Assembly: GCA_001275005.1 (NCBI GenBank) | Contig: JWZX01002598.1 | Span: 1 to 35,774, forward strand | Length of the DNA stretch: 35,774 bases | DNA from: Chrysochromulina tobinii | Lineage: Eukaryota > Haptophyta > Prymnesiales > Chrysochromulinaceae | Direction: 5' to 3' | Part shown: positions 3,956 through 35,538 of the stretch, one piece after another | Layout: every line of letters begins with the position of its first letter | Numbering within the stretch: the first letter of the stretch is position 1 | Program-made: the position numbers and the translations under genes | The notes under the pieces: model-generated | The model's input: the letters and a program-made list of their open reading frames with translations, nothing else | Told to the model about the DNA's origin: nothing | Databases searched by the model: none

Positions 3956-5243
3956 TCAAGTCCGATATTGCTGGTTTTGTTGCTCGAGCCTCTGATACTG
4001 CGATTGCAGATACTTGAAACGGGCAGCAGTTTCGTGCATCTCGCGCTGCAGCGTCATCGCGAGATCTGCTGTCGGGTGACTTTCGATTGTTGGCGGCTTC
4101 GATGCCGGCGGCTTCGCTATCGGCCGAGGAGGTGGTTGAGGAGGTGGTTGGGAAGATGGCGCCTTGGCTTTGGGCGGTGGCGGAGGTGCCGATGACACCG
4201 ACTCTGAATCAGAATCGCTGCCAGGTTTTGGCGCTGCCGCGCTGGTGGGAACGGGTTCGTCCTTGCCCAAGAAGCGACCCGATGGCCCACGTGGGCGCCT
4301 GGACGCGTGATCTTGCCGCGAGGGGTGATGCAGCTGCGGTACGTAGCCTCTCTCCACGCGTCTCACCATGAGCTTCATCTTCCATTCGCGCCTCTGCTCG
4401 ATCCGTTTGCGCTGCTTGTCGTTGGTGATGACGGCCCACTTCCGAGGTGGATATGCCGTGTGAACGATACACTCTTTGGTGACCACTCTTACCAACTCGT
4501 CGACCAAAGGGTCCTGCGCCCACTCCTCCTCGTAATGCTCCTCAAGGCGCCGCTTGCTGCGGGATTGCGATAGTGGGGGCTCCTTGAGCGTATTTGGAGG
4601 CGCGTCAGATGCCCCACGAGGGACGTGGACCCTGAAGGATGCTTGCTCGTCGAATGGCTGCGACGGGAAGCTGTAGGCTGGTTGGCCATCAATGTAAGCT
4701 TCTGAATGTGCCTTTTGACCGAAGGGTCGGCCTCCAGGCATCGTTGCCGCTGGCGGTGGCATTGGGGCTGGTCTGCTGCCGGGACCAGCCCACGTACGTG
4801 CGTTAGGCGGCACCTTGGCGGATACACGCTGCGATGCCATCGATGGATGGTACGTATGGCCCACATGCAGCAGACGATCCGCAGGTGGAGGCACCTTGTG
4901 CAGACGCTCGTGCAGCCGCAAGAGCTGTCGCTGCACCTGGCCTGATGTTTCGGACGTGCGATCATTATCGTGCGTGCCCAGGTTCCCTGGCAGAGTCTCC
5001 GACGGCAGCCCAATGTCCTCGCACATCATCTGCGAGCGCCGTCGCGCATGCACACGGGAGGGGATGGGACAGGTCAGTTCCGGCCAACGGAGCCCGAGCC
5101 CTACGGGTTCTGGCTTCTGGGTGAGGCTGAACATGCTGTCGAGACTGGCTCGACGGCGAGTTAGTCTGACGCAATGGGAAGGGCTTTTGTCCTCGGGATG
5201 GCTGCGCACGCACCAGGAGCTCTTCGTTGGCGTGGAGGGCCAT
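3956..5243 (-). CDS. Divergent NF-YA (CCAAT-binding factor subunit A)-like protein
   Basis: In the frame 5365-3956, residues 315-366 carry the two halves of the NF-YA core. The first is the subunit-association helix pattern N.KQ..RI..RR...K..L. The second is a DNA-contact helix with SRQDHASRRPRGPSGRFL, matching the canonical SRH.HA.RR.RG..GRF. NF-YA joins the NF-YB/NF-YC histone-fold dimer and inserts its A2 helix into CCAAT boxes. Here the canonical SRHxH is SRQDH, and one extra residue sits before the SR. The C-terminus is Pro-rich, then a short coiled coil (QREMHETAARFKYLQSQYQRLEQQ). The 5' end is uncertain. A second frame upstream (IIETIEQEMALHANEELL) joins in phase across a 97-nt intron, 5213-5117, with donor GTGCGT, branch ACTAAC and acceptor CCCAG. 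ATG 5243 is the first in-frame start of that exon, but its frame is open to about 5340, so another 5' exon may exist. Confidence 0.6.
5117..5213 (-). other. Predicted 97-nt spliceosomal intron in NF-YA-like gene
   Basis: On the minus strand the donor is CTG|GTGCGT, a perfect ACTAAC branch site lies about 45 nt before the acceptor, and the acceptor is CACCCAG|AAG. Removing it joins two frames that both look coding and that otherwise conflict. The length matches the 97- and 101-nt introns inferred in the EF-hand gene. Confidence 0.5.
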
Positions 5244-5365
5244 TTCCTGCTCGATCGTCTCAATAATAGCTCGATGGTCGGGTGTGCGGGAAGCCACAGA
5301 TCTTCGGGTCGCTGAAGGATGGTGGCGAGTCGCGCGGCAGGCTTACGGAATTCGGAATTCGTCAC

Positions 5366-5904: not shown

Positions 5905-8900
5905 ATGGCTGTGATAATAGGGGGTCCGGGGGTCCCCGAGCTAATGGTAACCGCATCCGTATGTACGCCGGTCCGGTGTCTTGGGCTGAGGCGGCGCGCA
6001 TCCTCCGGCTTTTCGCTCTTTGCCAGAGGATTGACGCCTCGCGGCATCGCGCTCGGCCATCTCATCGACCTGTACACAAACCCGACGTTGCTCGACCTGC
6101 CCGATCGACAGCGGCTCGCACTTGTGCTCATCGAGCAGGTTAGCCTACATCCCGCAAAGTCGGCCATCGAGCCGGGGCTAGCCGACCTGCGCGCAGCGAT
6201 CGCGCCACTGCCAGCCTGCCTGTGGGAGGAGTTTCAGTTGAAACTGATTGGGCTGACCGAGCCGGATGACCTTTGGGACCTCATGGAAACTCTCTTGGCG
6301 CTGCTTCAACCGCCGCTCATCGAGCCACACGAGATCGAGGGCCCCTTTACCATCGACCGCTCTTCGCTGCTTGGGCTGTACGTTCGGCGCATCCACCTAG
6401 CGTTCCGTGAAACTACCTTTGAGGAGCTGTGCACCCTCGTGACGCACTTTGGCCAGTGGGTCACCGCCGCGAACGCGCCCGAGGCATCGGAGGAGCCCGC
6501 AGTCGACGATGCGGTGGCGGCGGCAGCCCCTCCGCCATGGCAGTATTTGCTGCCCGCGTCGCAGCTGGAACAGCACGTGCACCAGCTGGTGCGGCTCGTG
6601 GAGGAGGGCCTGAGCGAGCTGCCGGCGGGCAGCTTGCCGCTCAAGCGCCAGGTGCAGCAGCTGCTGCTACTCGCGCCCAACGTGCCGCAGGTCCATTACC
6701 TCGATCTGCTCTGCCACCTCCAAGACAAGGCTTACGAAGACGCACTCGGGGCATTCCATCGGTACTTCGATAAGGTGCGCGCGGCGTCATCGGGTGCCGG
6801 CGCCGGCGGCGGCGCTGCCGCTGGCGCGCCCGCGCTGAGCCGCGACAGCACGCGTGCTCCGATCCAATGGGCCAGCCTCAATCTGGCTCGACTGCAGCTT
6901 GTGTTCGCGCATAAGGAGCACGCGCTCGCGGCGATCCAGGAGGCGGTGCGCTCGGCGCAGCAGCACGAGGATAACGTGTGCCTCGCGTACGCGCTGCTCT
7001 GGATGTACGAGGCCCACGCGAGTCCAGGGACCGCCGGTCCGCCCAGGACGTTATATGAGGAGTATGCGGCGGCCGAGGCAGCCGCAGAGGCGGCACGCGC
7101 GAAGCAGCAGCAGCCGGCGGGCGCGGCGGGCGCGGCGGGCGCGGCGGGCACAGCGGGCGCGGCGGGCGCGGCGGGGATGGCTGCGGGCGCGAGCGCGCAC
7201 CAGTCTTGGCCAACTGCTACGCCCCTCTCGAGCGCCGCCTCTGCCTCAAAGCAGCGTGCGCTACTCGAGCGCTGCCTCGCGCGTGCCCACGAGCTCGGGC
7301 TGCCCGAGCTCGTGGCGCTCGCTTCACAATCCCTGGCGCTGCGCGACATCGATGCGGTGGCACAGGCGCGCTTCGGAGCGCCGCTGGAACCGGTGACGCC
7401 CACGTCGGCGGCGCCGGAGCCAGTCGTCAACTTCGGGCGCGTGCCATGCTTGCCACCTGTGCCCCTCGCGTTGCCAGGTGCGCTGATTGCCATTGATTGC
7501 ATCTGATTGCCGCTGATTGCCTTTGATTGCCGTTGATTGCCGCCACCTGCGCCCCTCGCGTTGCCAGGTGCGCTGCCCTCGCTCGCGTCAGCGCAGCCGC
7601 CACCCCTGCACGTGTGGGCGGCGCTGCGCTGCGGCGCCGAGGGGTGCGGCGGCGCGTCGCAGCTCGTGCGAGCGTGCGCCTGGGAGCACTTCGGCGACAC
7701 ACGCCTCGCGGGGCTCGCAGCTTCGCTCCAGCTTCGCTTCCACAAGCCCGCGAGCCTCAGCGGGCGCGCCGTGGCGGCGCTGCCGCCGCCCGCGCCACCC
7801 TCGGCCGTGTTGGCGGCGGGCGCGCCGGCCGACGGTGCGCCCGCGCCTCAGCGGCCTCTGATCGTCGGCATCGACCTTTCACGCCCGACGCAGACCGACC
7901 GTGTGCTCGCCGCATGTAAGCTGGCCGTGCTCGCTTTCGGTCCTAAAGGCGAAGAGGGCGCACTGCAGATGCTCGTGCAGCTCCGTCCCCACTGCGCCGC
8001 GCCGCCGCTGTTCGCCCTCTGGCGGCAGCACACGCTCGAGGTGCTCGTGCGTGGCGCCGTGCTACGTGGCGAGCAGCGGCGCGCCTCGGAGTTCCTCGCG
8101 CTCCAGAAGAAGGAGGTGGCCGCTCAGCACGGCGCCTCGGACGTGACCTGGGCCGCTGAGCTCGAACTCCTCATCCAGCAGGGTGAGAACTTTCAGGCGA
8201 TCTGCAAGGCGGCTGACCTCGAGAAGACGCGCCCGCTGGGCAAGGCGGGTGGGCTCGCTTGCCCGCGCGCCACGATCAAGCTCGCCATGGCGAAGGCGCA
8301 TGCCCTCGGCGGCGATCCCCTCAATGCCATGCCTCACGCCCTCACGGCCATCGCGCTCGCCGAGCAGGCGTCGCTGCAGTCCGTGTACGCCTCGGCGGCG
8401 CTCCAGCTCGCTGGAGGTGCAGCTCGAGCTCGATCCGCCGCGCGCGCTCGCCCTGCTGCACAAGGTGCGCCCACAGGTGATGCGCAACGGCTCCACCTAC
8501 CAGGCGGCGCAGCTCCAGGCACTCACCGCGCACTGCCGGCTCGCGCAGCTGCCGGACTTTAACGCGACGACGCCGCCGCAGCTGCAGCCGCTGCGCACCC
8601 ACATCCTACCGGCCATTCGAGACGCTCTCAACGGGTTCGTCAAGCTGCGCTGCCACAACGAGGTGGCGCAGCTCCTGTACCTTCGTGCTCGCATCTGGAA
8701 CTCTCTCACAGACGTGGAGGCCGACGCCCTCGACCAGCGCGACCGTGACGCCGAGCTCTTCTGCCGCGCCGAGGAGGAGGCGAAGCGGGCGGCCATGCGG
8801 CCCTCGGGTGCCGTCTTCGAGTACGCGGAGCCCGGCGTGCTCGAGGCGCACCTGCAGAGGCTCAAGGAGCTCGACGCCGAGGCGGCCACCCTCTATGCAT

Positions 8901-13217: not shown

Positions 13218-15143
13218 TCAACTCGATTCTCTCTCGCTCGTCTCGAGCTCGTCCTGCGAGATTGTCTCGAGCTCGTCCACGACACGCTGCGCATCGGCGC
13301 GCCAGGCGGCAGCGGTGCTCACGCTCTTCTGCGCCATCAGCTGGCTGCTGCCGCGCATGAGCAGCGAGACACGCGCCGCCAAGATGAATTCGGATGGGAC
13401 GGTGACGAGCTGATCGTACGTGTCGAGCGCCTTGAGCGCCTGCGCGGGCGAGCGAGGCTTGCCGTTGCTCCACGTGTCCGGCGGCAGGTCGCGATCAAAG
13501 AAGAAGCCCGCAGTCGCCGCGAGACCCGCGGCTGAGTTATGGCGCGTCTCAAAGCCCAAGTCCGCTGCGGCGTGCGCCACGCGTAATCGAGCCGCCTCGA
13601 CTGCGGCAGCCTGCGCGTGCGCGTCGCCCTGTTCGTCGCCTGTGTGCTCGCCGTTGTGATCGCGTGTGTCATCGCCCTTGCAGTCGCCCTTGGCATCGCC
13701 CCGGACAGTTCGCGCCGTGTCGAGCGCCGCAGCTCGTCCTCTTCGGCGCTCGACACAGCGCTCTGGTCGGTACTCGGGGTCAGGCAGCGTGAGCGCCGCG
13801 GCGGGCGCATCGGCAAGCGCGAGGATGAGGCGCGCGAGCAGCAGCCGCTGGCGCGACGTGAGTCGCACGCACTGGCCAAAGTCAATCAAGCCGAGCCGCC
13901 CATCGGGAAGCAGCAGCACGTTGCCTGGGTGCGGATCCGCATGGAAGACGCCATCGAAGAAGATTTGGTGGCCGAGCGTGCGCAGCAGCAGCTCGAGCTG
14001 CCCGCGTGTCTGCCGGCGCAGCCACCAGAGCTTGGGCGCCGCGCGCGCGCGCTGTACCAGCGAGGGCGTTCGCACGTTTGTAGGCATCGGCCGCCCGAGC
14101 GCCTGCGCGCGCGCGGCTGCAAAGCCGCCCTCGCCGACCGCCTCGATGAACCGTTTGCTGATCGACTGGAGCAGCTTCTCGCCGGGGAGCCGCTCCATCA
14201 CGAGCACGCGCTCGGTCGTGAGCTCGAGGTACGGCGACGGGATGACGATGCGGGGCTCGACGCAGCGCCGACGGCACTCCAGCATGTCGCGCGCCTCGCG
14301 AGCATAGTCAAATTCCAACTGGAATCGCTTGCGTACCTCGCTCACCACCGGGCTCATGGCGGGCAGTGCGAGGCGTGCGAGCCGCGCCACGTTGCCCAGG
14401 TCGTGCCCGAAAAACTCTCGGGCCTCGCGGTACTGCAGCTTCAGCACGACGTCGCTGCCGTTGCGTAGCCGTGCCCGGTGCACCTGCCCGGTCGACGCAG
14501 CGCCCAGTGCCGTCTCGTCGACCCACTCAAGCTCGGCTGCGAGCGCCGGCGCGTCGCGCGGCAGCGTGCGCGCCAGCGCAGCCCAGGGCCGCGGCGGCAC
14601 GGCATCCTGAAGCGTGCTGAAGGCACGCACGTACGGATCGGGGAGGACATCGGCACGATTGGAAAGCACTTGGCCCATTTTAATGTAGCCTCCCGCCATG
14701 CACTGGACCAGCCGCAACGCTCGCGGCGCCTGCAGCTCGTGGTTCGTGGTGAAGCGCTCGGCGCGCAGCTCGACCGGCGCGGCCACAGTGCCCACCCAGA
14801 TGCCTGCGTAAGAGGATATGATGGGCGCGACGCCTAGCCAGAAGCGCAAACCCCGCCGCGCCCATGGTGTCGCTACGACCCATGTCGTCAGCGCTAGCAG
14901 TGCGGCACTCAGCCAAGGGACGCCATCCTCGCCAGGCGGCGGAGATGCCATCGTGGGCGGAGCTCCGCCACCGCCACCACCTCCGTTGCCGCTACGGAAG
15001 CTGCCACCGCGGCCGCGGCCGAGCGGTCGCAGCTTCAGGAAGGAGCCGGACATCATTTCACACGCGACATCTATGAACACGACTTTTCTTCCCTCAGGTC
15101 CGATCTTCTTAGTCACGTGAAGAGTTTTTTGGTTTCGCGTCAT
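13218..15143 (-). CDS. ABC1/UbiB (ADCK/ABC1K) atypical protein kinase
   Basis: 641 residues from ATG 15143, intronless. The family regulates quinone/isoprenoid metabolism in mitochondria and plastids. Diagnostic elements are in order: the KxGQ motif YIKMGQVLSNRADVLP (about 149-165), the Ala-rich loop GAASTGQVHRA that replaces the Gly-rich loop (212-222), the ATP lysine in VVLKLQY, the catalytic HADPHPGNVLL (about 399) and the metal-binding IDFGQ (about 417). The N-terminus is Arg/Ser/Gly-rich with a Gly7 run and then a hydrophobic segment (SAALLALTTWVVA), consistent with organelle targeting and membrane association; which organelle is not determinable. After the kinase core comes an acidic insertion of GDxxGD-like units (about 480-510) encoded by a short tandem repeat. 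It is divergent from eIF4A across 351 bp. Confidence 0.87.
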   Translation of the reverse strand: MTRNQKTLHVTKKIGPEGRKVVFIDVACEMMSGSFLKLRPLGRGRGGSFRSGNGGGGGGGAPPTMASPPPGEDGVPWLSAALLALTTWVVATPWARRGLRFWLGVAPIISSYAGIWVGTVAAPVELRAERFTTNHELQAPRALRLVQCMAGGYIKMGQVLSNRADVLPDPYVRAFSTLQDAVPPRPWAALARTLPRDAPALAAELEWVDETALGAASTGQVHRARLRNGSDVVLKLQYREAREFFGHDLGNVARLARLALPAMSPVVSEVRKRFQLEFDYAREARDMLECRRRCVEPRIVIPSPYLELTTERVLVMERLPGEKLLQSISKRFIEAVGEGGFAAARAQALGRPMPTNVRTPSLVQRARAAPKLWWLRRQTRGQLELLLRTLGHQIFFDGVFHADPHPGNVLLLPDGRLGLIDFGQCVRLTSRQRLLLARLILALADAPAAALTLPDPEYRPERCVERRRGRAAALDTARTVRGDAKGDCKGDDTRDHNGEHTGDEQGDAHAQAAAVEAARLRVAHAAADLGFETRHNSAAGLAATAGFFFDRDLPPDTWSNGKPRSPAQALKALDTYDQLVTVPSEFILAARVSLLMRGSSQLMAQKSVSTAAAWRADAQRVVDELETISQDELETSERESS

Positions 15144-15494: not shown

Positions 15495-17135
15495 ATGTCG
15501 GAGGACGGCATGACCGTCGAGACGAACTACAATGAAGGTGTGTCCAAGTGCCTCGATGCGATGCCGATGCACTTTCGATGCAATCTGATGAAATTGCTGC
15601 ACGCGCCGTGCTCATGGTGCAGTGATCGAGAGCTTTGACGACATGGGCCTCAAGGAGGACCTCCTCCGCGGCATCTACTCTTATGGCTTTGAGAAGCCGT
15701 CGGCGATCCAGCAGCGAGCGATCAAACCGCTCATCCTGATGCGCGATACGATCGCCCAGGCTCAGTCGGGCACTGGCAAGACGGCCACCTTCACTATTGG
15801 TGCGCGCCCGTGCCTCGCGCGCGTTTGCGGCTGTGCTGCCCGCAGCAGGGTGCTGCAGTTCAGCTCTTGGCGTATGTGGCTGGCAAGGGCGGCGCTGCCG
15901 ACTCCTCCCGCCTGCTGTTCGGCTGGCGGCGGGGTTGCCAAGGCTGCGGGTGGAGACGCAGAGCGCGGCGTCGCGTCGCAAGGCTCGTTGTCGGCACCGT
16001 CGACGGCAACACGGCAGCCGCTCGTCGGACGCCGGCTAGAGACGCGCCTGCCGTCGAGCCGGGCTGGGCACCGCCGGCACAGATGCGGCATCGCAGGCTG
16101 CGTTGCTGCTCCGTTGCTGCCGCGTCGCCGTCCTTCTTCAGCCTCTCCGCTGACATGCCGGCGCTCGCCTCTCTCGTGGCAGGCCTCCTGCAGAACATCG
16201 ACCTGTCCAACCGCGACTGCCAGGCGCTCATTCTCGCGCCGACGCGCGAGCTCGCGACGCAGATCGTCAAGGTGGTGACCGCCATTGGCGACTACATGGG
16301 TGTTTCGACGATGGCGTGCATCGGCGGCACCAACGTGCGCCAGGACATGGACAAGCTGCGCGCGGGTGTGCAGCTTGTGGTGGGTACGCCAGGCCGCGTC
16401 TTCGACATGATCAACCGTCGCGCCCTCGCTGTGGATTACATTCACTACTTCTGCCTCGATGAAGCTGACGAGATGCTCTCGCGCGGCTTCAAGGACCAGA
16501 TCTACGACGTCTTCCAGAAGCTGCCTCCCTCGGTGCACGTGGGCCTCTTCTCGGCGACGATGCCGGCCGATGTGCTCGAGCTCACCTCCAAGTTCATGCG
16601 TGATCCGATTCGGATCCTCGTGAAGCGCGACGAGCTCACCCTCGACGGCATCAAGCAGTTTTACGTGATGGTCGAGCGCGAGGAGTGGAAGCTTGACACG
16701 CTCTGCGACCTCTACGAGACGCTCACGATCACGCAGGCGATGATCTTCGTCAACACGCGGCGCAAGGTCGAGTGGCTCACCGAGAAGATGCACGGGCGCG
16801 ACTTCACATGCTCTGCCATCCACGCGGACCTCGACCAGAAGGAGCGCGAGCTGATCATGCGCGAATTCCGAAGCGGCGCGTCGCGCGTGCTCATCACGAC
16901 CGATGTGCTCGCGCGCGGCATCGACGTGCAGCAGGTGTCGCTTGTGATCAACTACGACCTGCCCACGAACCGCGAGAACTATATCCACCGCATTGGCCGC
17001 GGCGGCCGATTCGGTCGTAAGGGAGTCGCGATCAACTTCCTCACCTCAGAGGACGTTCGCACGTTGCGCGAGATTGAGCAGTTCTACAACACCCAAATCG
17101 AGGAGATGCCGATGAACGTCGCGGACCTGATCTAA
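15495..17135 (+). CDS. EIF4A: Translation initiation factor eIF4A (DEAD-box RNA helicase)
   Basis: Three exons: 15495-15537, 15623-15799 and 16183-17135, total 1173 nt, 390 residues, close to the usual size of about 400. Introns are 85 nt (GTGTGT...GCAG, phase 1) and 383 nt (GTGCGC...GGCAG, phase 1, with CTGAC 28-32 nt before the acceptor). Motifs in order: Q motif [21 protein letters not shown], Ia PTRELA, GG, Ib TPGR, II DEAD, III SAT, then the eIF4A-type strings [13 protein letters not shown] and [32 protein letters not shown] and [15 protein letters not shown], ending [11 protein letters not shown]. These place it with canonical eIF4A rather than eIF4A-III. It unwinds mRNA leaders as part of eIF4F. 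The start is ATG 15495 ([14 protein letters not shown]), which splices directly into the conserved [19 protein letters not shown]. Confidence 0.95.
15800..16182 (+). other. Long eIF4A intron 2 (383 nt)
   Basis: Four times longer than the other introns in this window. Open frames run through it on both strands, but only because it is GC-rich; none resembles a known protein. I see no box C/D or H/ACA snoRNA with convincing paired boxes. Confidence 0.75.
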
Positions 17136-19342: not shown

Positions 19343-20656
19343 CTAAGAAGGAGGCTCTGGCAGTCGTTGCTTGACTCGCGCTGCAGTCTCGAGCACGCGA
19401 AGCTTGCTCCTCCAGTCGTCCGCGGTCAAATAGCAACCAATCAGGTTGCGACGCCCCTGGAAGGCGTACCGGCCGTGGAGCACGCGGTGGTTGTCGATGA
19501 GGATCGTGTCGCCGCACTCGAGGCGCAGTGGCACCTGCAGCGCCTCGAGCGTCGTCTCGAGCACGCGCGCGTGCGCATAAAAATCGGCCACGTCATCAAA
19601 CCCGAGAGAGCACAAAGGCGCGCGGTCCGTGTCATTGTAGCGGAAGCCGATGACCTCGGCCGTGACCGGATGCAGCTTGAAGACCGGCGCGGTGTGCACC
19701 AGATGCCGCTCGCCCTCGACGTGCTGGAAGGGGATGGAGACGCGGCAAAAGAACGCGAAGGTCGCTGGGAAGTCACGCCGCAGTACTTCGGCCGCCATGA
19801 ACCCATCGGCCAGCTTGGTGCTGCCGCCGTGCGGTACGCTGGGGTGTGGCGGCGGCTGCTCGACGCAGTTGAAGAGCTGGATGCCCGGCTGCGCCTCGAG
19901 GTAGCAGCAGTCGGTGTGCAGCGGCAGCTCTACGTTAGTGTACGCCGTGTCGATCACGTCCTCCAGATTGCGTGGGGCCGTGTCCCATATATAGCCATAC
20001 ATGGTAGGCTGCACCATGCCGAGCTGCATCGCGAGCGCCTCCGTCGCCTCGACCGTGGGTGGCACGCCACGCACGCGCAAGATGCCGGAACGCCGCAGGT
20101 GCCGCAGCGCCGTTAGCGTGGTTTCGTCGGCCACGGCGCTCGACGCAGCCAGCGACTCCCAGGCCACATTGGGCACGTTTCCGCCCGCCATCTCTTCAGG
20201 CAACCAGGGGCTCACCTTATCGGCTCTGGACTTCACAACCTTGGTGCTCGATGCCGTCTTGGCACCGACCCGAACGTCGTAGCGGTGCTCAAAGAGCCAT
20301 TCGGCGGCAAAGGTGGAGACGTGTTCCTTGCCGCTCGCCTCGTTGGCTGCCGGCCACGCGACCTGGATATGATTGCCGTTGATATCCACGCGCGCGGGTG
20401 CGGTGCCAGAGACGTGCCGTAGCGGCAGCTCCCGCTGATGCGAAACTGGGTGCACCGACTGCGGGCAATGATCTCGGAGCCACGCGTGATGAAAGCGGCT
20501 TTCGCTGCCGTCCGACCACGTGAGATGCACAGCAGCTGGGTTGACGGCCACACCAGTTACAATAGCGGATGTTGACTGTGCGCGCCGTGTCGTACCGCTC
20601 AGCAGCGGGACAGCAGCATTTCGTGTGAGGTTGCGTCGCACTCGGGCGAGCAACAT
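19343..20656 (-). CDS. TMLHE: Trimethyllysine dioxygenase-like Fe(II)/2-oxoglutarate oxygenase (carnitine pathway)
   Basis: 437 residues from ATG 20656. The frame continues upstream only to a non-ATG position, so 20656 is preferred, and it gives an Arg-rich mitochondrial presequence (MLLARVRRNLTRNAAVPLL). Residues about 41-110 are the N-terminal domain shared by trimethyllysine and gamma-butyrobetaine hydroxylases (LTWSDGSESRFHHAWLRDHC). The TauD-type double-stranded helix carries the iron triad: HTD in LPLHTDCCYLEAQPGIQLF (about 247) and the distal His in IDNHRVLHGRYAFQG (about 390). The segment GCYLTADD after it favours TMLHE over gamma-butyrobetaine hydroxylase, but the two are hard to separate by eye. 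Expected reaction: hydroxylation of N6-trimethyllysine (or gamma-butyrobetaine) with 2-oxoglutarate, O2 and Fe(II). Confidence 0.82.
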   Translation of the reverse strand: MLLARVRRNLTRNAAVPLLSGTTRRAQSTSAIVTGVAVNPAAVHLTWSDGSESRFHHAWLRDHCPQSVHPVSHQRELPLRHVSGTAPARVDINGNHIQVAWPAANEASGKEHVSTFAAEWLFEHRYDVRVGAKTASSTKVVKSRADKVSPWLPEEMAGGNVPNVAWESLAASSAVADETTLTALRHLRRSGILRVRGVPPTVEATEALAMQLGMVQPTMYGYIWDTAPRNLEDVIDTAYTNVELPLHTDCCYLEAQPGIQLFNCVEQPPPHPSVPHGGSTKLADGFMAAEVLRRDFPATFAFFCRVSIPFQHVEGERHLVHTAPVFKLHPVTAEVIGFRYNDTDRAPLCSLGFDDVADFYAHARVLETTLEALQVPLRLECGDTILIDNHRVLHGRYAFQGRRNLIGCYLTADDWRSKLRVLETAARVKQRLPEPPS

Positions 20657-21519
20657 CGCGAAGTGTCGCGCGTGCAACCGTGTGAACAACCTGATGTGCA
20701 GTGTTAATACTCGGCCGACTACTCGGAATCTATGGTGGGGCAAACCTGATCATTTTCTCACTATACACCTGTGAACACGCCTAATACACACCACCACACG
20801 TTCACAGCGCCAACGAGATGCTGCACAGGACCCTCCAACGCGAGCGTGCGGTGACACATGCGATGCAGACGGAAAGCGGAGTCCGGAGAGACTGTACCAA
20901 AACAGAGAAACGCGTTCGCGGTGCGGCCGCGGGCCGACAGGTGACCCCACATGCAGACCTTCGCAAGATCCAAGCGCTTCCATATCAAATTCTCCATGAC
21001 GTTACCATGACGTGAAGCCGATCATCCACGAATCCATCCGAGGACCATCCCCAGATATCCCAGTTAGAGCGTACCAAATGGAGTGTATACGGATCGGATG
21101 GAGACCGGCAGGCCACCAGGCCACGCCACACAGCGCAAATCCGTATCGTGATTCCGCAAACCGCCCTGTCACGCCCGGGCTGCACACCGCACCGATCCGT
21201 CGATTCCCGCATCATCACGTCTCCGTTTGATCCGCCATCGCGTGTTTTCACACCGACCGGTCCCGCGGTAACATAGTTACACGCACGGTTGGCGTAAATG
21301 GTACACCTGCAAATGGTGCTCGTCTACAACGGCTCCAAGAACAGATGCGGAATTCACGCTTGGCCACGATTCGGACTCACATGGTGATTGGGGTGCGGGA
21401 GAATCGCACAATGTCTTTCCCACTGAGAACCATGGCCTGAATCAGCTATGAATTAGCCCTGAATGGAATCCACCATGGCTGCTTTCCTATTGTATGTCAC
21501 CACGCGCCAGATGGCCACA
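20657..21519. other. Intergenic region, no gene seen
   Basis: 863 bp between the dioxygenase 5' end and the EF-hand gene 3' end. It is less GC-rich than the genes. A CATGACGT word is repeated at 20996 and 21007. No domain-like frame. Confidence 0.4.
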
Positions 21520-28478: not shown

Positions 28479-31400
28479 TCACGCCTCGAGCAGCTGAGAG
28501 TAGGGCACCTCGGGCGAGGCCGACGGCTTGGAGTAGCTGCCCCAGTAGGTGCCGTCCGAGCGCCGGCCGCACAACCCGAGCGTAAGCACCACGAGCGTGC
28601 AGTACACGGCCTCAACGGCCCACATGCAGAGCGAGCCGATCGGTCCACGGCCTGGTGTGAAGGCAAACCAATCGGGCTCTGGTAGGTAGGCGGGCGCCTG
28701 GAGCGAGTCGCCGACGCTGCGCTGGCTGATCGCCTCACGGCCCACTTCCTTAACAGCCGCACCGACGCCGATGACGCCGTAGGCGTCGTCGCTCAGGGCA
28801 GGGAAAGCGCCGAGGGCGAAGGTGAGGTACTTGGCTGCGAGTGCGAAGCTGAGGAGTGCGACTGCATGCGTCTCCACGTCATCTCCCCACGGAAGCGGGT
28901 GAGGCATGTACTCCATCGTGGCCGGCAGGCAGGGCACGAGGACCATCGCGGCGCAGATGGCTGATGAGAAGATCATCTCCGTGCGCCGCTGCGCCGACGT
29001 TTGCTGCTGCAGCACGGTAGGCGCGATCAGCGGCAGCACCGCGCGTAGAAACGTCTCAAGAAACCGCCGTCGCTCGCAGATGACGGCGCACGCGGCGCGC
29101 AAGCCGCCGTTGCAGAGTACGCGCAGCCACTGCCAGCCGAAGGCGGCGAGCACAGCGGAGATTGCCACCAAGTCGAGCAAGCGGCCGAGCGCCGAGCCGA
29201 GCACGAGCAACGCGAGCGCGCGCAGGGTGGCATCCGCCGTGAAGTAGACGGCCATGAGGGCGTTCACTTGGGCGGAGCGTACGTACTCGTCGCGCACTCG
29301 GAGGCCGGCTGAGGTGGCCTCGCTTGTGGTGAGGTCGGTCAGGCTGAGCACAAGCGTCGCGAAGGAGACGAGCGCCGAAACCAACACGATCGGCTGCTCG
29401 TGCCGCACCTTAAGGTACTCGTTGTCATCGCAGTAGATGAGGACCAGGACCACCATCGGGCCGCACTGGAGGATGGACGTGGTCGCCGCGAGCAACCCAT
29501 ATTTGGGCGACTCACGCTTCTGCGACAGGGCCGAGCGGAAGGCCTCGACGGGCACGGCGAGTCCGACGCTATTGACCGTGCTTTCGGCGAGGGCCACAAC
29601 CAAGCTTGGATTTGGTCTGTCTTGAGGACTTAGATTTGGCTGCATCTGGACTGTCTTGAGGACCCTCGGCGGTGAAGCGCCTCTGGGGCCGTGCAGCGCC
29701 ACTGGGGCGACGGCTGGGGTCGACGGCAGTTTGGGGAGACGGGCCTTGGCTGAGGCATGCTGCACGGGCCTCGCGCCCGCAAGTCTCGCCTCCTCGCTCG
29801 CCAGCTGGTGCACGGAGAGCGCGCCCACCTCGGCGGCTGTGAACCAGTCAGGGTCCGATCCATAGCAGATGAGCTTGCGCCACGGCGTCTCGCCGTTGAG
29901 GTCGGTGTATTGGCCAGCGCGCCAGCCGCCGTCGCCTTGCAAATGCCACGAGAGCCGCTGCGGGTCGCGCGGGTTCATCGAATCCGCGCGGTACTGCTGC
30001 AGCTCGCTATTCGGCGCAAAGCCAAACGAGTAACCGTCAGTGCGGTACCACCAGACGCCGTTGTGCTCGTGCGGCTCGTTGTGAGGCGTGCGACGAAGCA
30101 CGTCGTCGCGCTTACCGAAGGCGCCAAGGGCGACCGCGTTCGCGCCAGCCTCCCGCGCGCCGACGAAGACCCACTCGGCGTGCGACGGGATCGTGTCGAG
30201 GTGGTACGCGGTCGTCGCATGGCTGTAGGGCACCTCGTAGTGCTTCGTCATCAACGCCAGGTCGTTGGTCGTGACCGCGTTCAGCCAGATCGAGCCGAGG
30301 CCCACGAGCGAGCCGTTGCTCACCGAGGGAATCAGAGGCGAGAAGGGCGCGTTGGGCGGCGGCGGGAGCGAGCGGTCGATCTTCTCGTGCTGCAGGCTGG
30401 CCGCACACGCGAGATACCCATGGGACAGGTTAGGCGTGCTGACGGCGGCCGCGGCAGCAGAGCTCGGATGTTGATACGTGCTGCTCGTAGCCGCCTCGGC
30501 GGGCGTAGTGGGCGCACGCGACGACTGCAGCCGCTCAGCGAGATAGGAGCGAGCGGAGGCGATCGAGGTGCGGCGCTTTGAGGGCGGCGGCGAGGAAGAG
30601 CCGTCCACTGGGGGCGAAGGCGGCGGCGAGGGCGGAGCTTGGCGAGATGCCGGGCGGTTTGAGCGTTGAATCCCGCCCGCGCCGATGCGCGTGGCGGGGG
30701 GGCTCGATGAGAGCCAACGGCTCTCGTCGCCGGGCGCCAAAGAGTACTCCTCGGCGCCGTAGCGTGAGGTGTAGTAGAGCATCTTGGTCCACGCACCAAC
30801 GCCCAGAGCGGTGCCCACACGGTAGCCTCCGAGCCCATGTAGACCCCAGCTCAGGCGTGCTGGGTCCGACTCGTTGGACGCATCCACCAGGTAGCCACGC
30901 TTGCCCACGTCTGGAGAGGCCGCGAAGCCAAAGGAGGCGTCGTCAGTGCGGTACCACCAGACGCCGTTGTGCTCGTGTGCGACGTGCTTCTCTGTCCGCG
31001 GATCGAGATGCGTCCGACGCACCACCTCCTCGCGCCGACCAAAGGCTCCGACAGCGATCGTGGAGGATCCTTGGCGGTACGCGCCGACGAAGACCCACTT
31101 GGCGTCCGCCGGGATCGAGTCGAGCTCGTCGCCGCTCGTCGCATGGCTATACGGCTCGTCGTAGTATGTGGTCATGCCAGACAGATCCTCGAGCGCGAGC
31201 GCGTTCACGAGCACGCCCTGCTGGAGTGGGAATTTCATCAGCAGCTGCCCATCGGGCCCCTCGATGCGATACGGATGCTCCTCGCGCTCCTCGTCGAACA
31301 GCGAGGGCGGGCTCGGTGGCGGGCTTGGCGGCGGCGAGGGCTCGGGGGCGGGGCGGGGGCCAAAGGCGACGGTGGAGCGTTCCTTCTGCGTGAACGTCTG

Positions 31401-32231
31401 ATCGACAAGCTCGACAACCGTGCCCTTTTTGCTGAGCTTGGCCAAGCGAACAGTGTCACCCACCTCGGGCCGCAGCACGGGCGTCTGCCTGTCGTACGCG
31501 GTGTACATACGGGTGGCTAGGGCCGCCACCACGAGCACAAAGACCGCGGCGGTCGCAAAGGCCACCTGGCTTGCGAGCACGAAGCTCCAGATCATCAGTA
31601 CGCTGGTTGTGAGAGCGGCGAGATGCACCAGGCCTCCCATGAGCAGTTTCAAGCGCCACAGCACACCGCCGCCGCCGCCGCCGCCGCCGCTCTCTAACGA
31701 GTCCGCAAACCCGCTCATCTCCGGCGAGCTCGGGCGGGCGTTGGCGCCGAAACGGAAGCGCGCCATCAGGTCGTCGACGAGCTTGCCCAGCAGCGCGAGC
31801 ACCACGACCACGCCGATGCCATACGCGACCCCGAATGTCGCACCGAGACGTAAACTGACCGCCGGCGCCGCGGTGCACACACATGGCGATTGGAAAGGCA
31901 TGCCCACCGCATCGATGCTCTGCCCGTCGTAGCAGTCCCACGAGCCTAGCTCGGGCAGGTACAGGTACATGGCGCCTTCGCAGGCCTCGTCGAGGTGGGC
32001 GAGGCTCTCGGTGGGCAGCTGATAGTGCGAGCTGAGCGCGTTGACCACTTTGGCGGAGGCCATCTCCCGCGTTGTGATGTACTCGTCCGCATCGTAAAAG
32101 ATCGGTGGTGCAAGCGCACGCGCGCGCGCGGCGAGCGCGATCGGCAGCCGGAAGAGTTCTGTGTAGCTGCCGCATGCCTCGGCGCAGGACTCGCCCGGCT
32201 TCGTCAGGTGCCAGCAGCGCGCGTCGACCAT
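28479..32231 (-). CDS. Polytopic membrane protein with Cys-rich module and two copies of an unnamed domain; probably the C-terminal half of the kinesin fusion
   Basis: 1250 residues from the Met at 32231. The frame is open further upstream into a Pro-rich stretch (PPNPPPLISLDSELC), so this Met is unlikely to be the true start. Residues 1-125 are a Cys-rich module (ARCWHLTKPGESCAEACGSY ... SPCVC). TM helices follow at about 127-155 and 200-245, then an SH3-like segment (VGDTVRLAKLSKKGTVVELV). Two copies of a domain of about 135 residues lie at 352-485 and 659-790, with shared strings PYSHAT, LD.IP..A.WVFVGA, HEHNGVWWYRTD, SFGFA, RLSW.L.G.GG.R.G and W.K..Y. A Ser/Pro-rich linker joins the copies. 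After about residue 905 there are six or more hydrophobic helices and a short tail. Its location is a membrane compartment; function unknown. I infer that it is continuous with the kinesin frame. Confidence 0.72.
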   Translation of the reverse strand: MVDARCWHLTKPGESCAEACGSYTELFRLPIALAARARALAPPIFYDADEYITTREMASAKVVNALSSHYQLPTESLAHLDEACEGAMYLYLPELGSWDCYDGQSIDAVGMPFQSPCVCTAAPAVSLRLGATFGVAYGIGVVVVLALLGKLVDDLMARFRFGANARPSSPEMSGFADSLESGGGGGGGGVLWRLKLLMGGLVHLAALTTSVLMIWSFVLASQVAFATAAVFVLVVAALATRMYTAYDRQTPVLRPEVGDTVRLAKLSKKGTVVELVDQTFTQKERSTVAFGPRPAPEPSPPPSPPPSPPSLFDEEREEHPYRIEGPDGQLLMKFPLQQGVLVNALALEDLSGMTTYYDEPYSHATSGDELDSIPADAKWVFVGAYRQGSSTIAVGAFGRREEVVRRTHLDPRTEKHVAHEHNGVWWYRTDDASFGFAASPDVGKRGYLVDASNESDPARLSWGLHGLGGYRVGTALGVGAWTKMLYYTSRYGAEEYSLAPGDESRWLSSSPPATRIGAGGIQRSNRPASRQAPPSPPPSPPVDGSSSPPPSKRRTSIASARSYLAERLQSSRAPTTPAEAATSSTYQHPSSAAAAAVSTPNLSHGYLACAASLQHEKIDRSLPPPPNAPFSPLIPSVSNGSLVGLGSIWLNAVTTNDLALMTKHYEVPYSHATTAYHLDTIPSHAEWVFVGAREAGANAVALGAFGKRDDVLRRTPHNEPHEHNGVWWYRTDGYSFGFAPNSELQQYRADSMNPRDPQRLSWHLQGDGGWRAGQYTDLNGETPWRKLICYGSDPDWFTAAEVGALSVHQLASEEARLAGARPVQHASAKARLPKLPSTPAVAPVALHGPRGASPPRVLKTVQMQPNLSPQDRPNPSLVVALAESTVNSVGLAVPVEAFRSALSQKRESPKYGLLAATTSILQCGPMVVLVLIYCDDNEYLKVRHEQPIVLVSALVSFATLVLSLTDLTTSEATSAGLRVRDEYVRSAQVNALMAVYFTADATLRALALLVLGSALGRLLDLVAISAVLAAFGWQWLRVLCNGGLRAACAVICERRRFLETFLRAVLPLIAPTVLQQQTSAQRRTEMIFSSAICAAMVLVPCLPATMEYMPHPLPWGDDVETHAVALLSFALAAKYLTFALGAFPALSDDAYGVIGVGAAVKEVGREAISQRSVGDSLQAPAYLPEPDWFAFTPGRGPIGSLCMWAVEAVYCTLVVLTLGLCGRRSDGTYWGSYSKPSASPEVPYSQLLEA
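29850..30255 (-). repeat. Second copy of the WVFVGA/HNGVWWYRTD domain (protein-level repeat)
   Basis: Encodes KHYEVPYSHATTAYHLDTIP through the W.KLICY end. Its partner copy lies at 30775-31180. Identity is clear at motif positions but the DNA is diverged, so the duplication is old. Confidence 0.8.
30775..31180 (-). repeat. First copy of the WVFVGA/HNGVWWYRTD domain (protein-level repeat)
   Basis: Encodes YYDEPYSHATSGDELDSIP through W.KMLYYTS. It is separated from the second copy by a Ser/Ala/Pro-rich linker of about 170 residues. Confidence 0.8.
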
Positions 32232-32250
32232 CTCGCCTTGCAGGCAGAGT

Positions 32251-35200
32251 TCAGAGTCCAGTGAGATGAGCGGTGGCGGGTTGGGGGGTTTCGGGCTTGG
32301 AGGTGGCGCGGGCGGCGCGGGGGGGCGGCAGTGGCGGGAAGGTATAACCTCCGAGGGGCATTTCGAGGTACGGCAGCCAGGGCGCCGGTAGCACGCCCGC
32401 GACGGCGCTGGGCACTGTGCCCGGCATGCTCCAGAGCGCGACGCGTAGCCCGATCAGTCCGCCGCAGAGGAGCATCACGATCCACACGAGTGGAGACTGC
32501 AGAAATGGCCGCACAGCATTCCCCACAGCCTGCACCGCGCCGATCATGCGCCTCCATGCCCGGTACAAGGGACTGGCCTCGCGCGCGGCCTTTTCGGCCT
32601 TAGCACGCTTCTTGAGCGTTGCTGCGCTCGGACCATCCACAACGGCCTCCTTGTGCGCCTGCTCCGCTTGGGCCTCGAGGCATCTGCGCACCACGTGCGC
32701 GATGATGAGGAGCGCCATCAGCCCGAGCGCAAAGAGGAGCTGGTATGGCGGCAGCGCGGCGGTCAACAGCGGAATGAGCTCGGGCGGCGAAGGCGGCGCC
32801 GGGAGGCATTTGCACGGGCTGCGCGCGTGCAGCCCCGCAGGCGGGGGATCCGTGGGCTTCAGGTTGGCAAAGCAGTGCCAGAGCGATGGCGCCGTCGGAC
32901 CCGTCTTGTAGAGCAGCGTGAGTCCAGCACACGTGGAGGCTTCATCGACGGCCACATGCTCATACGAGGCGCTGTCCCACCCAGAAAGGGGAAGCATGCC
33001 CGCAAGGGTCAGCTCGTTCAGGCATGCGACTACCGCAGGCCGACCGCTGCCAACGGACGTCGCCTCTTCGTCGAACCCGCCCATGGACGCACACGCGGCC
33101 GTGCAAGACTCATCCTCCTTGGCAAGTAGCCAGCACTCGTCGCCCACGGCAGCGCCACCGCCGGGGCACGGGTGGGCCTCCCGCCACTCGGCGCACTGTG
33201 CGGCCCAGGTAAAGGCGGGCGGCGGCGGCGGTGGGCGCGGGTGGATTCTCGCATCGTAGTAGCCGTACATCGCAAGCGTCTGCCAGACGAGGAAGACTCC
33301 CGCCGCGACCAGGACCGGATGCCGCTGGGCGGAGCTGAAGAAGTCGCCAGACAGGCGCTCCGCCATCTCGGCCAGCTGCACCAGTATACGCGCCGTGCCG
33401 AGCACACAGGTCTCCACCCCACGGGACACGCCCATGGCGCAGGCCTCGAGGGCGACCGAGATCGCGGCGCGCGCCGCGCCGGGCGCACTCGCGCACGCGC
33501 GCGCACCCGCGAGGACGGCGCCGTACAGCGCGACGCACGTCGCGGTGGGCCCTTCGACGACCAGCCACCAGAGGGCAGTGCCGAGGCCCTTGAGGAGCCC
33601 ATAGAGCAGCTGGAAGGGGAGGATGAGGATGCTCAGGATCATCCAGCGCGTGTACAGCAGCAGCCAGCACATCCATCTCCCGCAGCCCTCGAAACAATCG
33701 CAAAGGCTAGTGCGCAGCACTGCGGCCTGCGTCGTCACCGGCTCGGTGAAAGTGGCAACTGTCTCGGTGGCATCGCTGAAGACCTGGGTGACGGCGACGG
33801 CGAGCGTCTCAGGAGGAGGCTTCAGTTCCGGAGGCTCCTCGAACGTGTACGCGTTCGCGGCGGCGCGGTTGGCGATCTGCTTGGCGCGCGCGGCGTATTG
33901 GAGCGTTTGGAGCGTCTCGGCGTAATTGGAGGCCGTGGGGGCGATGGTGGCGAGCATGGCGGTGTTGGCGTTGCCCCCGAGGGACTGCTCGAGGATCTGG
34001 GTCAGCTTGGAGGCACGATAAGGGACCACCTGCGCCTTGGAGGCTCTGGGGTCCGTCAGGGCATTGATGACGTTACCCAGTGCCGAGAGGCTCTGGTTGA
34101 TGGCAATGGCCTCCTGCAGAGTCTCATCCTGCGCGCCGCTCTTCTTGGCGCGCTCGGAGCCCGCGAGGTCGACGAGGCACATCTTGGCGAACACGCGCTT
34201 CTTCTGGGACGAGCCCGCGTAAAACTCGATCTCCTGCTCAACCCGGATGATGACGATGGCATGCGAGCGCGAAGACTCCGCGTTCATGAAAGTCGAGGCG
34301 ACGGCACGCTTCTTGTTGCCGCGCTCGATGATCTCTGCGAGGCCGGCGGCATCCTCGATCTGATGCTCGGTCAGGCCCTGCACATATGTCCCCAGCTTCG
34401 GGTCGCGGCGCACCTTGAGGTCCACTCCGCTCGCGTCGTCCACGAGCAGGTCGTGCACGATCTCGCGGTAGATCTGGAGGTACGAGGCGCACACACGCAC
34501 CGAGCGCCCATCCTCGAGCAAATCCACCTTGTCGAAGACGGCGTCGGCAACGCGAGGGATCACGCCGGGATCGTCGGGTGTACCCATCATCGAGTGAGTC
34601 TTGCCGCTGCCCGTCTGCCCGTAGGCGAGGATCGTCGCGTTATATCCGTCGAAGATGCCGTCGACGAGCGGCGCTGCGAGCTCTTCGTACAGAGCCTCAC
34701 TCGAGCTCAGGTGATTGAACAGGTGATCGTAAGCAAAGATGCTCTTCTGAGGCGATGACGTGTCTCCGTCGCACAGCGGCTGCTGCAGGCAGATGAGCGA
34801 CGGCTGACTCGGGTCGAGCAGCACCACATTCTGCTCGCGTGCCTTGCGCTCGGAGCGCGACATCGGGCGGCAGCGCACGCCCACGCGCACGTTGGTCTCA
34901 CGAGCCGTCGCTCGCGCCGTGCGCGCGGTGCGAGGCGCCGGCGCGCGTTCAGTCTCCGGCGGCACCGCTTCCTCCTCCTCGGGGCGTGGGCTGAGCGTTG
35001 GCTGCGGCCGCGCCTGGCGCTGCACCGAGGGCGACGCGCGTGACGGCATAGGCGAGGCTACACCAGCACAGGCGCCGGCGACCATGTCGGCGATGCCGTC
35101 CGCCTCTACTGGCTCGCCACCTGCTGGCAACATGAGCTCGGCCGCCGCCACCACGATGAACTGGTTGCTGCCATCCTGCAGACGGACGCCCCACCGGCCG

Positions 35201-35538
35201 GTCGCGGGGTCCTCCCGTTCGACAATAACGGCTTTGCCAGCCAACTCCTGCCGCGCACCCTGGACACGGAGGATCATGCGCCGTCCGGGGTGGGGGCGAC
35301 CGGCCGCCGTCGAGCTGACAAAGGTCATGCCCTCCTTTGCGGTGCCGGCGCCAGAACCAAGCCCGCCGCGGTGAGTCTTTGCCCTCCGCTGGCGGCCCGG
35401 CGATTTGTTGTTGATTGCACTCTGTGGCTCTCGCGAGGACATGCACGTGGACATTGGCTGCGGAACCAGGCACGCCACTTGCTCGCGGACCGCGGCCCGA
35501 AAGTTGGCCCAAACGAAAGTGAAGTTCCGCGGAACCAT
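32251..35538 (-). CDS. Kinesin motor fused to membrane-spanning and Cys-rich segments (N-terminal half)
   Basis: 1095 residues from ATG 35538. Residues about 85-140 form an SH3/KOW-like unit (GKAVIVEREDPATGRWGVRLQDG). The kinesin motor spans about 215-560: VRVGVRCRP, P-loop GQTGSGKT (about 305), switch I NAESSRSHAIV, switch II VDLAGSE (about 452) and YRASKLTQILEQSLGGN. All ATPase and microtubule-binding signatures are intact, in an N-kinesin position. No coiled coil follows. Instead there are hydrophobic helices at about 616-650 (WMCWLLLYTRWMILSILILP), 736-760, 923-952 and 1016-1036. Between helices two and three lies a Cys-rich module after a Pro tract (DECWLLAKEDESCTAACASM), similar to the one in the next frame. 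The frame ends at 32251 in aberrant sequence just after a G7 run at 32319-32325 (+ strand). Motor assignment is certain; the fusion is inferred from a continuous reading frame without a stop. Confidence 0.85.
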   Translation of the reverse strand: MVPRNFTFVWANFRAAVREQVACLVPQPMSTCMSSREPQSAINNKSPGRQRRAKTHRGGLGSGAGTAKEGMTFVSSTAAGRPHPGRRMILRVQGARQELAGKAVIVEREDPATGRWGVRLQDGSNQFIVVAAAELMLPAGGEPVEADGIADMVAGACAGVASPMPSRASPSVQRQARPQPTLSPRPEEEEAVPPETERAPAPRTARTARATARETNVRVGVRCRPMSRSERKAREQNVVLLDPSQPSLICLQQPLCDGDTSSPQKSIFAYDHLFNHLSSSEALYEELAAPLVDGIFDGYNATILAYGQTGSGKTHSMMGTPDDPGVIPRVADAVFDKVDLLEDGRSVRVCASYLQIYREIVHDLLVDDASGVDLKVRRDPKLGTYVQGLTEHQIEDAAGLAEIIERGNKKRAVASTFMNAESSRSHAIVIIRVEQEIEFYAGSSQKKRVFAKMCLVDLAGSERAKKSGAQDETLQEAIAINQSLSALGNVINALTDPRASKAQVVPYRASKLTQILEQSLGGNANTAMLATIAPTASNYAETLQTLQYAARAKQIANRAAANAYTFEEPPELKPPPETLAVAVTQVFSDATETVATFTEPVTTQAAVLRTSLCDCFEGCGRWMCWLLLYTRWMILSILILPFQLLYGLLKGLGTALWWLVVEGPTATCVALYGAVLAGARACASAPGAARAAISVALEACAMGVSRGVETCVLGTARILVQLAEMAERLSGDFFSSAQRHPVLVAAGVFLVWQTLAMYGYYDARIHPRPPPPPPAFTWAAQCAEWREAHPCPGGGAAVGDECWLLAKEDESCTAACASMGGFDEEATSVGSGRPAVVACLNELTLAGMLPLSGWDSASYEHVAVDEASTCAGLTLLYKTGPTAPSLWHCFANLKPTDPPPAGLHARSPCKCLPAPPSPPELIPLLTAALPPYQLLFALGLMALLIIAHVVRRCLEAQAEQAHKEAVVDGPSAATLKKRAKAEKAAREASPLYRAWRRMIGAVQAVGNAVRPFLQSPLVWIVMLLCGGLIGLRVALWSMPGTVPSAVAGVLPAPWLPYLEMPLGGYTFPPLPPPRAARATSKPETPQPATAHLTGL
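32319..32325. other. G7 homopolymer at the junction of the two giant-gene frames
   Basis: With six instead of seven bases here the kinesin frame continues as PPLPPP then APPAPPPSPKPPNPPP straight into the second frame. A one-base homopolymer surplus is therefore the simplest cause of the split. Confidence 0.7.

What the first reader, a model, noticed from the sequence alone, without database searches (positions are those of the whole stretch)
28479..35538. A kinesin motor built into a giant polytopic membrane protein
Seen: an intact N-terminal kinesin motor (GQTGSGKT, SSRSH, DLAGSE) followed, with no coiled coil, by transmembrane helices, a Cys-rich module and more helices, and then, one base out of frame, a second Cys-rich module, two unnamed repeated domains and six or more C-terminal helices. 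Removing one base gives about 2350 residues. Known kinesins reach membranes through adaptors or lipid-binding domains; I know of no described kinesin with an integral polytopic body. It would couple microtubule motion directly to a membrane.
Basis: partly seen in the sequence, partly recalled or inferred. Interest (0 to 1): 0.88.

Follow-up and report, generated by a model that had tools for sequence, protein, structure and literature searches.

The report
Kinesin motor fused to membrane protein
A haptophyte alga appears to encode a microtubule motor built directly into a large membrane protein that may be distantly related to lipid scramblases, so that the motor would pull or hold a membrane without an adaptor.

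Summary
The window is from the haptophyte Chrysochromulina tobinii. In detail: an intact N-terminal kinesin motor continues in one open frame into membrane helices and a Cys-rich module; one base out of frame follow a second Cys-rich module, two repeats and more helices. The break is best read as a one-base length error in a C7 run: codon statistics switch frame there, a metagenomic homologue (P0002) reads through the junction in one frame, no frameshift-stimulating RNA fold was seen, and the genome came partly from 454 reads. The body has relatives without a kinesin. Its helices may form a divergent XK-related (scramblase-type) core split by a cytosolic insert; this rests on sub-threshold Pfam matches in homologues, not in the window. 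The motor's five nearest kin found have soluble-looking tails; one is in the same genome. None of 25 other kinesin loci examined shows two or more helices in the motor's frame (5 have tails too short to tell). No second species with motor and body in one protein was found, so misassembly or a gene boundary in the linker is the main rival. Proposed role: a membrane-embedded motor or tether, perhaps for the cisternae around haptonema microtubules (untested).

The parts
33874..34875 (-). kinesin motor domain (residues 222-555 of the first ORF), catalytic motifs intact
   Evidence: Pfam PF00225 full-length, E 5.2e-104; PDB matches; same place
33259..33873 (-). linker after the motor, with hydrophobic stretches at residues 634-652 (score 1.83), 659-677 and 742-760 (these two only at the laxer threshold 1.4)
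   Evidence: open frame, codon score +0.06 to +0.15 per codon against -0.3 to -0.5 for the other sense frames; no paralogue of this stretch in the own genome
32794..33216 (-). Cys-rich module 1, probably luminal/extracellular
   Evidence: 40% identity to P0002 over 192 residues
32689..32745 (-). transmembrane helix (residues 932-950)
   Evidence: hydropathy 2.21, counterpart in P0002 169-187
32434..32490 (-). transmembrane helix (residues 1017-1035)
   Evidence: hydropathy 2.32, counterpart in P0002 245-263
32319..32325 (-). C7 run in the Pro-rich linker where the frame changes
   Evidence: codon statistics switch between 32420 and 32300; no stable RNA fold, z 0.28
31863..32252 (-). Cys-rich module 2
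   Evidence: homologous to P0002 from residue 323 on
31776..31832 (-). transmembrane helix after Cys module 2
   Evidence: hydropathy 2.19
31527..31646 (-). helix pair corresponding to XK-related TM1-2
   Evidence: the homologous pieces of P0002 and P0003 each hit PF09815 alone, profile 3-51 and 3-50; the window's own piece does not
31407..31463 (-). short SH3-like stretch
   Evidence: PF20297 E 0.0084, below its cut-off
30759..31217 (-). repeat domain copy 1 (unnamed family)
   Evidence: 69% identical to P0002 copy 1; no PDB match with the repeat profile
29847..30290 (-). repeat domain copy 2 (unnamed family)
   Evidence: distant copy in P0005
28482..29570 (-). C-terminal helices corresponding to the rest of the XK-related core

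Best explanation
One gene encodes a protein of about 2350 residues: an N-terminal kinesin motor in the cytosol, a short linker, then a polytopic membrane body with two Cys-rich modules outside the cytosol and an XK-related-like helical core into which two cytosolic repeat domains are inserted. Shown: the motor, the body, the continuous frame from motor to Cys module 1, and a homologue that reads through the later frame break. Inferred: that the break is a homopolymer length error of the assembly; that the core is a divergent XK-related fold; that the protein sits in a membrane with its motor facing microtubules. Mechanism proposed: the motor is followed by no long coiled coil (by inspection), so it would work as a membrane-bound monomer or be paired by the body, and many copies in one membrane would pull it towards microtubule plus ends or hold it against microtubules. 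A candidate site is the fenestrated cisternae around haptonema microtubules, described in other Chrysochromulina (PMC6398456, passages seen); C. tobin has a long coiled haptonema (PMC4580454, passages seen). Lipid scrambling by the core is possible but untested.
For: Motor intact. First ORF open from motor through Cys module 1 and the next helices; codon scores favour that frame among the sense frames to about 32400, then the second frame (weakest near Cys module 1, -0.06 to +0.05). P0002 carries Cys module 1, helices, Pro linker, Cys module 2, repeats and C-terminal helices in one frame, 40-47% identical in the main blocks. The NCBI model P0001 (1662 aa, 'kif17-like') also joins motor and body; 5 of its 6 gaps are multiples of three and cut out open sequence, partly conserved in P0002, while the one that is not (337 bases) spans the frame break. 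Assembly used 454/Newbler plus Illumina/Velvet (PMC4580454, passages seen). XK-related: P0002 TM1-2 and P0003 TM1-2 hit only PF09815, at profile 3-51 and 3-50 (E 0.034, 0.091); P0002 TM3+ hits only PF09815 at 122-177 (E 0.042); own paralogue L010 TM3+ at 119-190 (E 2.7e-4); 4 of 4 reversed pieces hit nothing up to E 10. XKR4, XKR8 and XKR9 stand at ranks 17, 19 and 44 of the VIA-align list with aligned lengths 181, 191 and 185.
Against: No second species with motor and body together (7990, 7992 and 7990 candidates scored). P0002's predicted start lies after the place where the motor would be; P0003, P0004 and the own paralogue L010 carry no kinesin match (of L010 only the piece 58-2706 was scanned, and one search has no kinesin match at its place). 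The linker of about 200 residues has no homologue. XK-related matches are all below the curated cut-off, and 4 of the 8 pieces tested do not hit it: both window pieces, P0004 TM3+, and L010 TM1-2, which prefers 'Competence' at E 7.1e-4. hhalign against the own XKR-like group A3 is negative, PDB profile search negative, the models are poor (pLDDT 38 and 45), and ESX and ABC-exporter rows rank above the XKR rows.
Confidence: 0.62

Rival explanations
1. Misassembly or gene boundary: a kinesin gene and a separate body gene were joined, or lie next to each other, and the open frame through the linker is chance.
For: Linker 33259-33873 has no homologue; P0002 starts at the first Cys module; the nearest kinesins have soluble-looking tails; the final assembly was made by shredding and re-joining consensus sequences.
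Against: Frame kept over the whole linker with coding-like codon usage; the NCBI model spans it; P0002 as predicted has no helix ahead of its first Cys module (by inspection no signal peptide), so its real gene probably starts further upstream.
Confidence: 0.2
2. The frame break is real: the gene is a pseudogene in this strain, or makes a 1095-residue motor with a few helices plus a separate second protein.
For: The assembled sequence has it, and the frame-A ORF ends at 32251 soon after the run.
Against: It lies in a C7 run in a genome sequenced partly by 454; codon usage continues at once in the second frame; P0002 is continuous there; both halves are otherwise free of stops.
Confidence: 0.12
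3. Programmed frameshifting at the C7 run makes both a short and a long product.
For: A run of C at the crossover; two long overlapping frames.
Against: No RNA structure above chance in the 76 bases folded (z 0.28); the homologue needs no shift.
Confidence: 0.04
4. The body is not XK-related but another polytopic family, and the fusion is only a membrane-anchored kinesin.
For: All XK-related matches of the body's kin are under the curated cut-off and 4 of 8 pieces miss; the fold list is led by unrelated helical proteins and ABC exporters; A2 against A3 negative.
Against: Two separate halves of P0002 pick the same family in the right order; reversed controls hit nothing.
Confidence: 0.35

Closest known systems
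C. tobinii kinesin L027 (contig C1612) and metagenomic kinesins P0006-P0009
   Same: same motor subfamily: 46-61% identity, clade of six with support 99/97, the window motor sister to the other five
   Different: long tails that look like coiled coil (inspection), no run of membrane helices (P0007 has one hydrophobic stretch at 1.61)
P0002 (ENA metagenomic protein, 1627 aa)
   Same: whole body in the same order, 40-47% identity in the main blocks
   Different: no kinesin in the predicted protein; 5' end probably incomplete
P0004 and C. tobinii C798 protein (L010)
   Same: related C-terminal helices; P0004 also has a Cys module
   Different: C2 domain in P0004, EF-hands in the core of L010, no copies of the repeats seen; no kinesin match
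XK-related proteins (XKR4, XKR8, XKR9; PF09815)
   Same: weak, colinear profile matches in homologues; similar helix arrangement in a low-confidence model
   Different: window itself below detection; large insert between TM2 and TM3; motor and Cys modules added
Kinesin gene models tagged 'TM' in PMC1434745 (tables and legends seen)
   Same: kinesin models with predicted membrane segments are already in print (poplar LG_XVI0226, kinesin-5, tag TM; 'MFS' in a legend, species not seen)
   Different: tags only; no body of this kind in the passages read

Membership tests
Kinesin superfamily | full motor domain with P-loop, switch I, switch II | tested here: met
   PF00225 1-327/327, E 5.2e-104; motifs aligned to KIF13B
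Kinesin superfamily | microtubule-stimulated ATPase and movement | not testable with these tools
   needs purified protein
Kinesin subfamily of L027/P0006-P0009 | motor groups with these to the exclusion of the other own kinesins in the tree | tested here: met
   clade of 6 of 25 rows, support 99/97; L039-L043 were not in the tree
Kinesin subfamily of L027/P0006-P0009 | long soluble tail without a run of membrane helices | tested here: not met
   the five others lack such a run; the window has a polytopic tail
XK-related (PF09815) | score over the curated cut-off | tested here: not met
   window none; best of its kin P0002 13.8 and L010 20.5 bits against 24.8
XK-related (PF09815) | TM1-2 and the ESxPQ-type TM3 region in colinear order (motif name recalled) | tested here: inconclusive
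   4 of 8 pieces match in the right places, including both halves of P0002; the window's two pieces do not
XK-related (PF09815) | XKR fold | tested here: inconclusive
XK-related (PF09815) | phospholipid scrambling | not testable with these tools
   needs a liposome or cell assay

The most novel reading that the evidence does not exclude
A kinesin whose cargo is built in: a motor fused to a scramblase-type membrane core, moving or tethering a specialised membrane (such as the cisternae around haptonema microtubules) while remodelling its lipids.
Probability: 0.25. Interest if true: 0.88.

Novelty: new variant of a known kind. Interest (0 to 1): 0.62.

Why it matters
Kinesins are generally held to reach membranes through adaptors, light chains, receptors or lipid-binding domains (own knowledge). 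A motor that is itself a multi-pass membrane protein would be a different way to couple microtubules to membranes. [quoted passage not shown]

Tried and rejected
Programmed frameshift: judged unneeded. Intron across the break, as in P0001: judged unlikely because the cut-out stretch has a counterpart in P0002. A paralogue of the fusion in the same genome: the first ORF's tail finds only itself; the C-terminal piece finds itself and the C798 protein L010; repeat copy 2 finds only the two copies of the window. Other own kinesins with membrane tails: 25 loci examined (20, 5; one search lists 130 match rows, many of them exons of one gene, so a large part was not examined); none has two or more helix-like stretches in the motor's open frame as far as fetched (L023 has one at 1.62); 5 of the 25 have under 65 residues after the motor in that frame and say little, and exons further on were not looked at. 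Viral contigs: no relative of P0002 or of the repeat; GTDB genomes: none of the repeat. Fold of the body, 1065 residues: pLDDT 38, not searched. Foldseek with the C-terminal helices: best E 0.24, no XKR among the 50 rows shown. NCBIfam: nothing for three proteins. Papers: searches gave no title or abstract start that describes a kinesin as a polytopic membrane protein or joined to XK-related proteins; one search showed 25 of 232 papers. The two papers were opened at the phrase and speak of a 'transmembrane kinesin receptor'. The library lacks most subscription journals.

Full report
What is there. On the minus strand two long frames follow one another: 32251-35538 (1095 aa) and 28479-32231, whose frame is open from 32453. 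The first begins with an intact kinesin motor and runs without a stop through a linker, a Cys-rich module and two helices. The second holds another Cys-rich module, a helix, a helix pair, a short SH3-like stretch, two repeats and about seven C-terminal hydrophobic stretches. The name of the public protein encoded here identifies the organism as the haptophyte Chrysochromulina tobinii (taxonomy).

The frame break. The two frames overlap in a Pro-rich linker and meet at a run of seven C. Codon statistics trained on 10,655 codons from 12 other loci of the genome favour the first frame among the sense frames up to about 32400 and the second from about 32300 on. The metagenomic protein P0002 carries both Cys modules and everything behind them in one frame. 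The RNA around the run folds no better than shuffles. The genome was assembled from 454/Newbler and Illumina/Velvet consensus sequences (PMC4580454, passages seen). The NCBI model P0001 gets past the break with a 337-base gap, and its other five gaps (114, 588, 294, 246 and 285 bases as mapped) are all multiples of three; the paper gives a single intron per gene on average. I conclude that the break is most likely a homopolymer length error, without having seen reads.

The fusion of motor and body. In its favour: one frame, coding-like codon usage through the linker (score +0.06 to +0.15 against -0.3 to -0.5 for the other sense frames; the best antisense frame lies between -0.08 and +0.03), and P0001. 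P0002 as predicted starts at the first Cys module without a helix, and by inspection without a signal peptide, so its gene probably starts further upstream; what lies there is unknown. Against it: the linker has no homologue, and three protein searches gave no second protein with motor and body.

The motor. Its nearest kin found are four metagenomic kinesins and one C. tobinii gene, L027, with long tails that look soluble and have no run of membrane helices. In a tree of 25 motors the window's is sister to those five (clade 99/97; the five together 92/89). Of 25 other own kinesin loci examined, none has two or more helix-like stretches in the motor's frame; five have too short an open tail to tell, and many match rows were not examined.

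How it may work. The motor would face the cytosol and the Cys modules the other side. With no long coiled coil seen, pairing would have to come from the body or from crowding in the membrane. Many such proteins in one membrane would pull it along microtubules or hold it there. [quoted passage not shown] tobin has a long coiled haptonema (PMC4580454, passages seen). That makes it a testable place; nothing here shows that the protein is there.

Known or new. Predicted membrane segments in kinesin gene models are in print as tags (PMC1434745, passages seen), but I found no description of a kinesin with a polytopic body like this one in the listings. I rate it a new variant of a known kind, interesting if the fusion is confirmed.

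Noticed in passing
L011, L012, L013, L014 (own genome contigs C384, C1658, C1474, C1482): Large open frames with an XK-related-like helical core followed by LKxAGY-type repeats (L011: Pfam Decapeptide E 2e-71); the piece of L013 is over the XK-related cut-off (25.5 against 24.8 bits) and their profile finds XKR4 in the PDB at E 0.018. They look like a group of scramblase-like proteins.
   Followed up: partly
L010 (contig C798): A protein with a C2-like stretch (inspection), helices related to the window's C-terminal ones and several EF-hands inserted among them; looks calcium-regulated.
   Followed up: partly
window 29847-30290 and 30759-31217; P0005: A repeat domain of about 150 residues (WVFVGAR..GAFGRREEV..HEHNGVWWY..RLSWHL.G.GGWRAG) without a Pfam match or a PDB profile match; a distant copy sits in P0005 beside ankyrin- and LRR-like stretches.
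   Followed up: partly
P0001: The public gene model of this locus has five gaps that are multiples of three and remove open, partly conserved sequence, so its introns are probably wrong.
   Followed up: yes
window 3956-5365 (-), 5905-7506 (+), 13218-15143 (-), 15810-17135 (+), 19343-20743 (-): Neighbouring ORFs with NF-YA, APC5, ABC1 kinase, DEAD-box helicase and TauD-type dioxygenase domains; ordinary.
   Followed up: no
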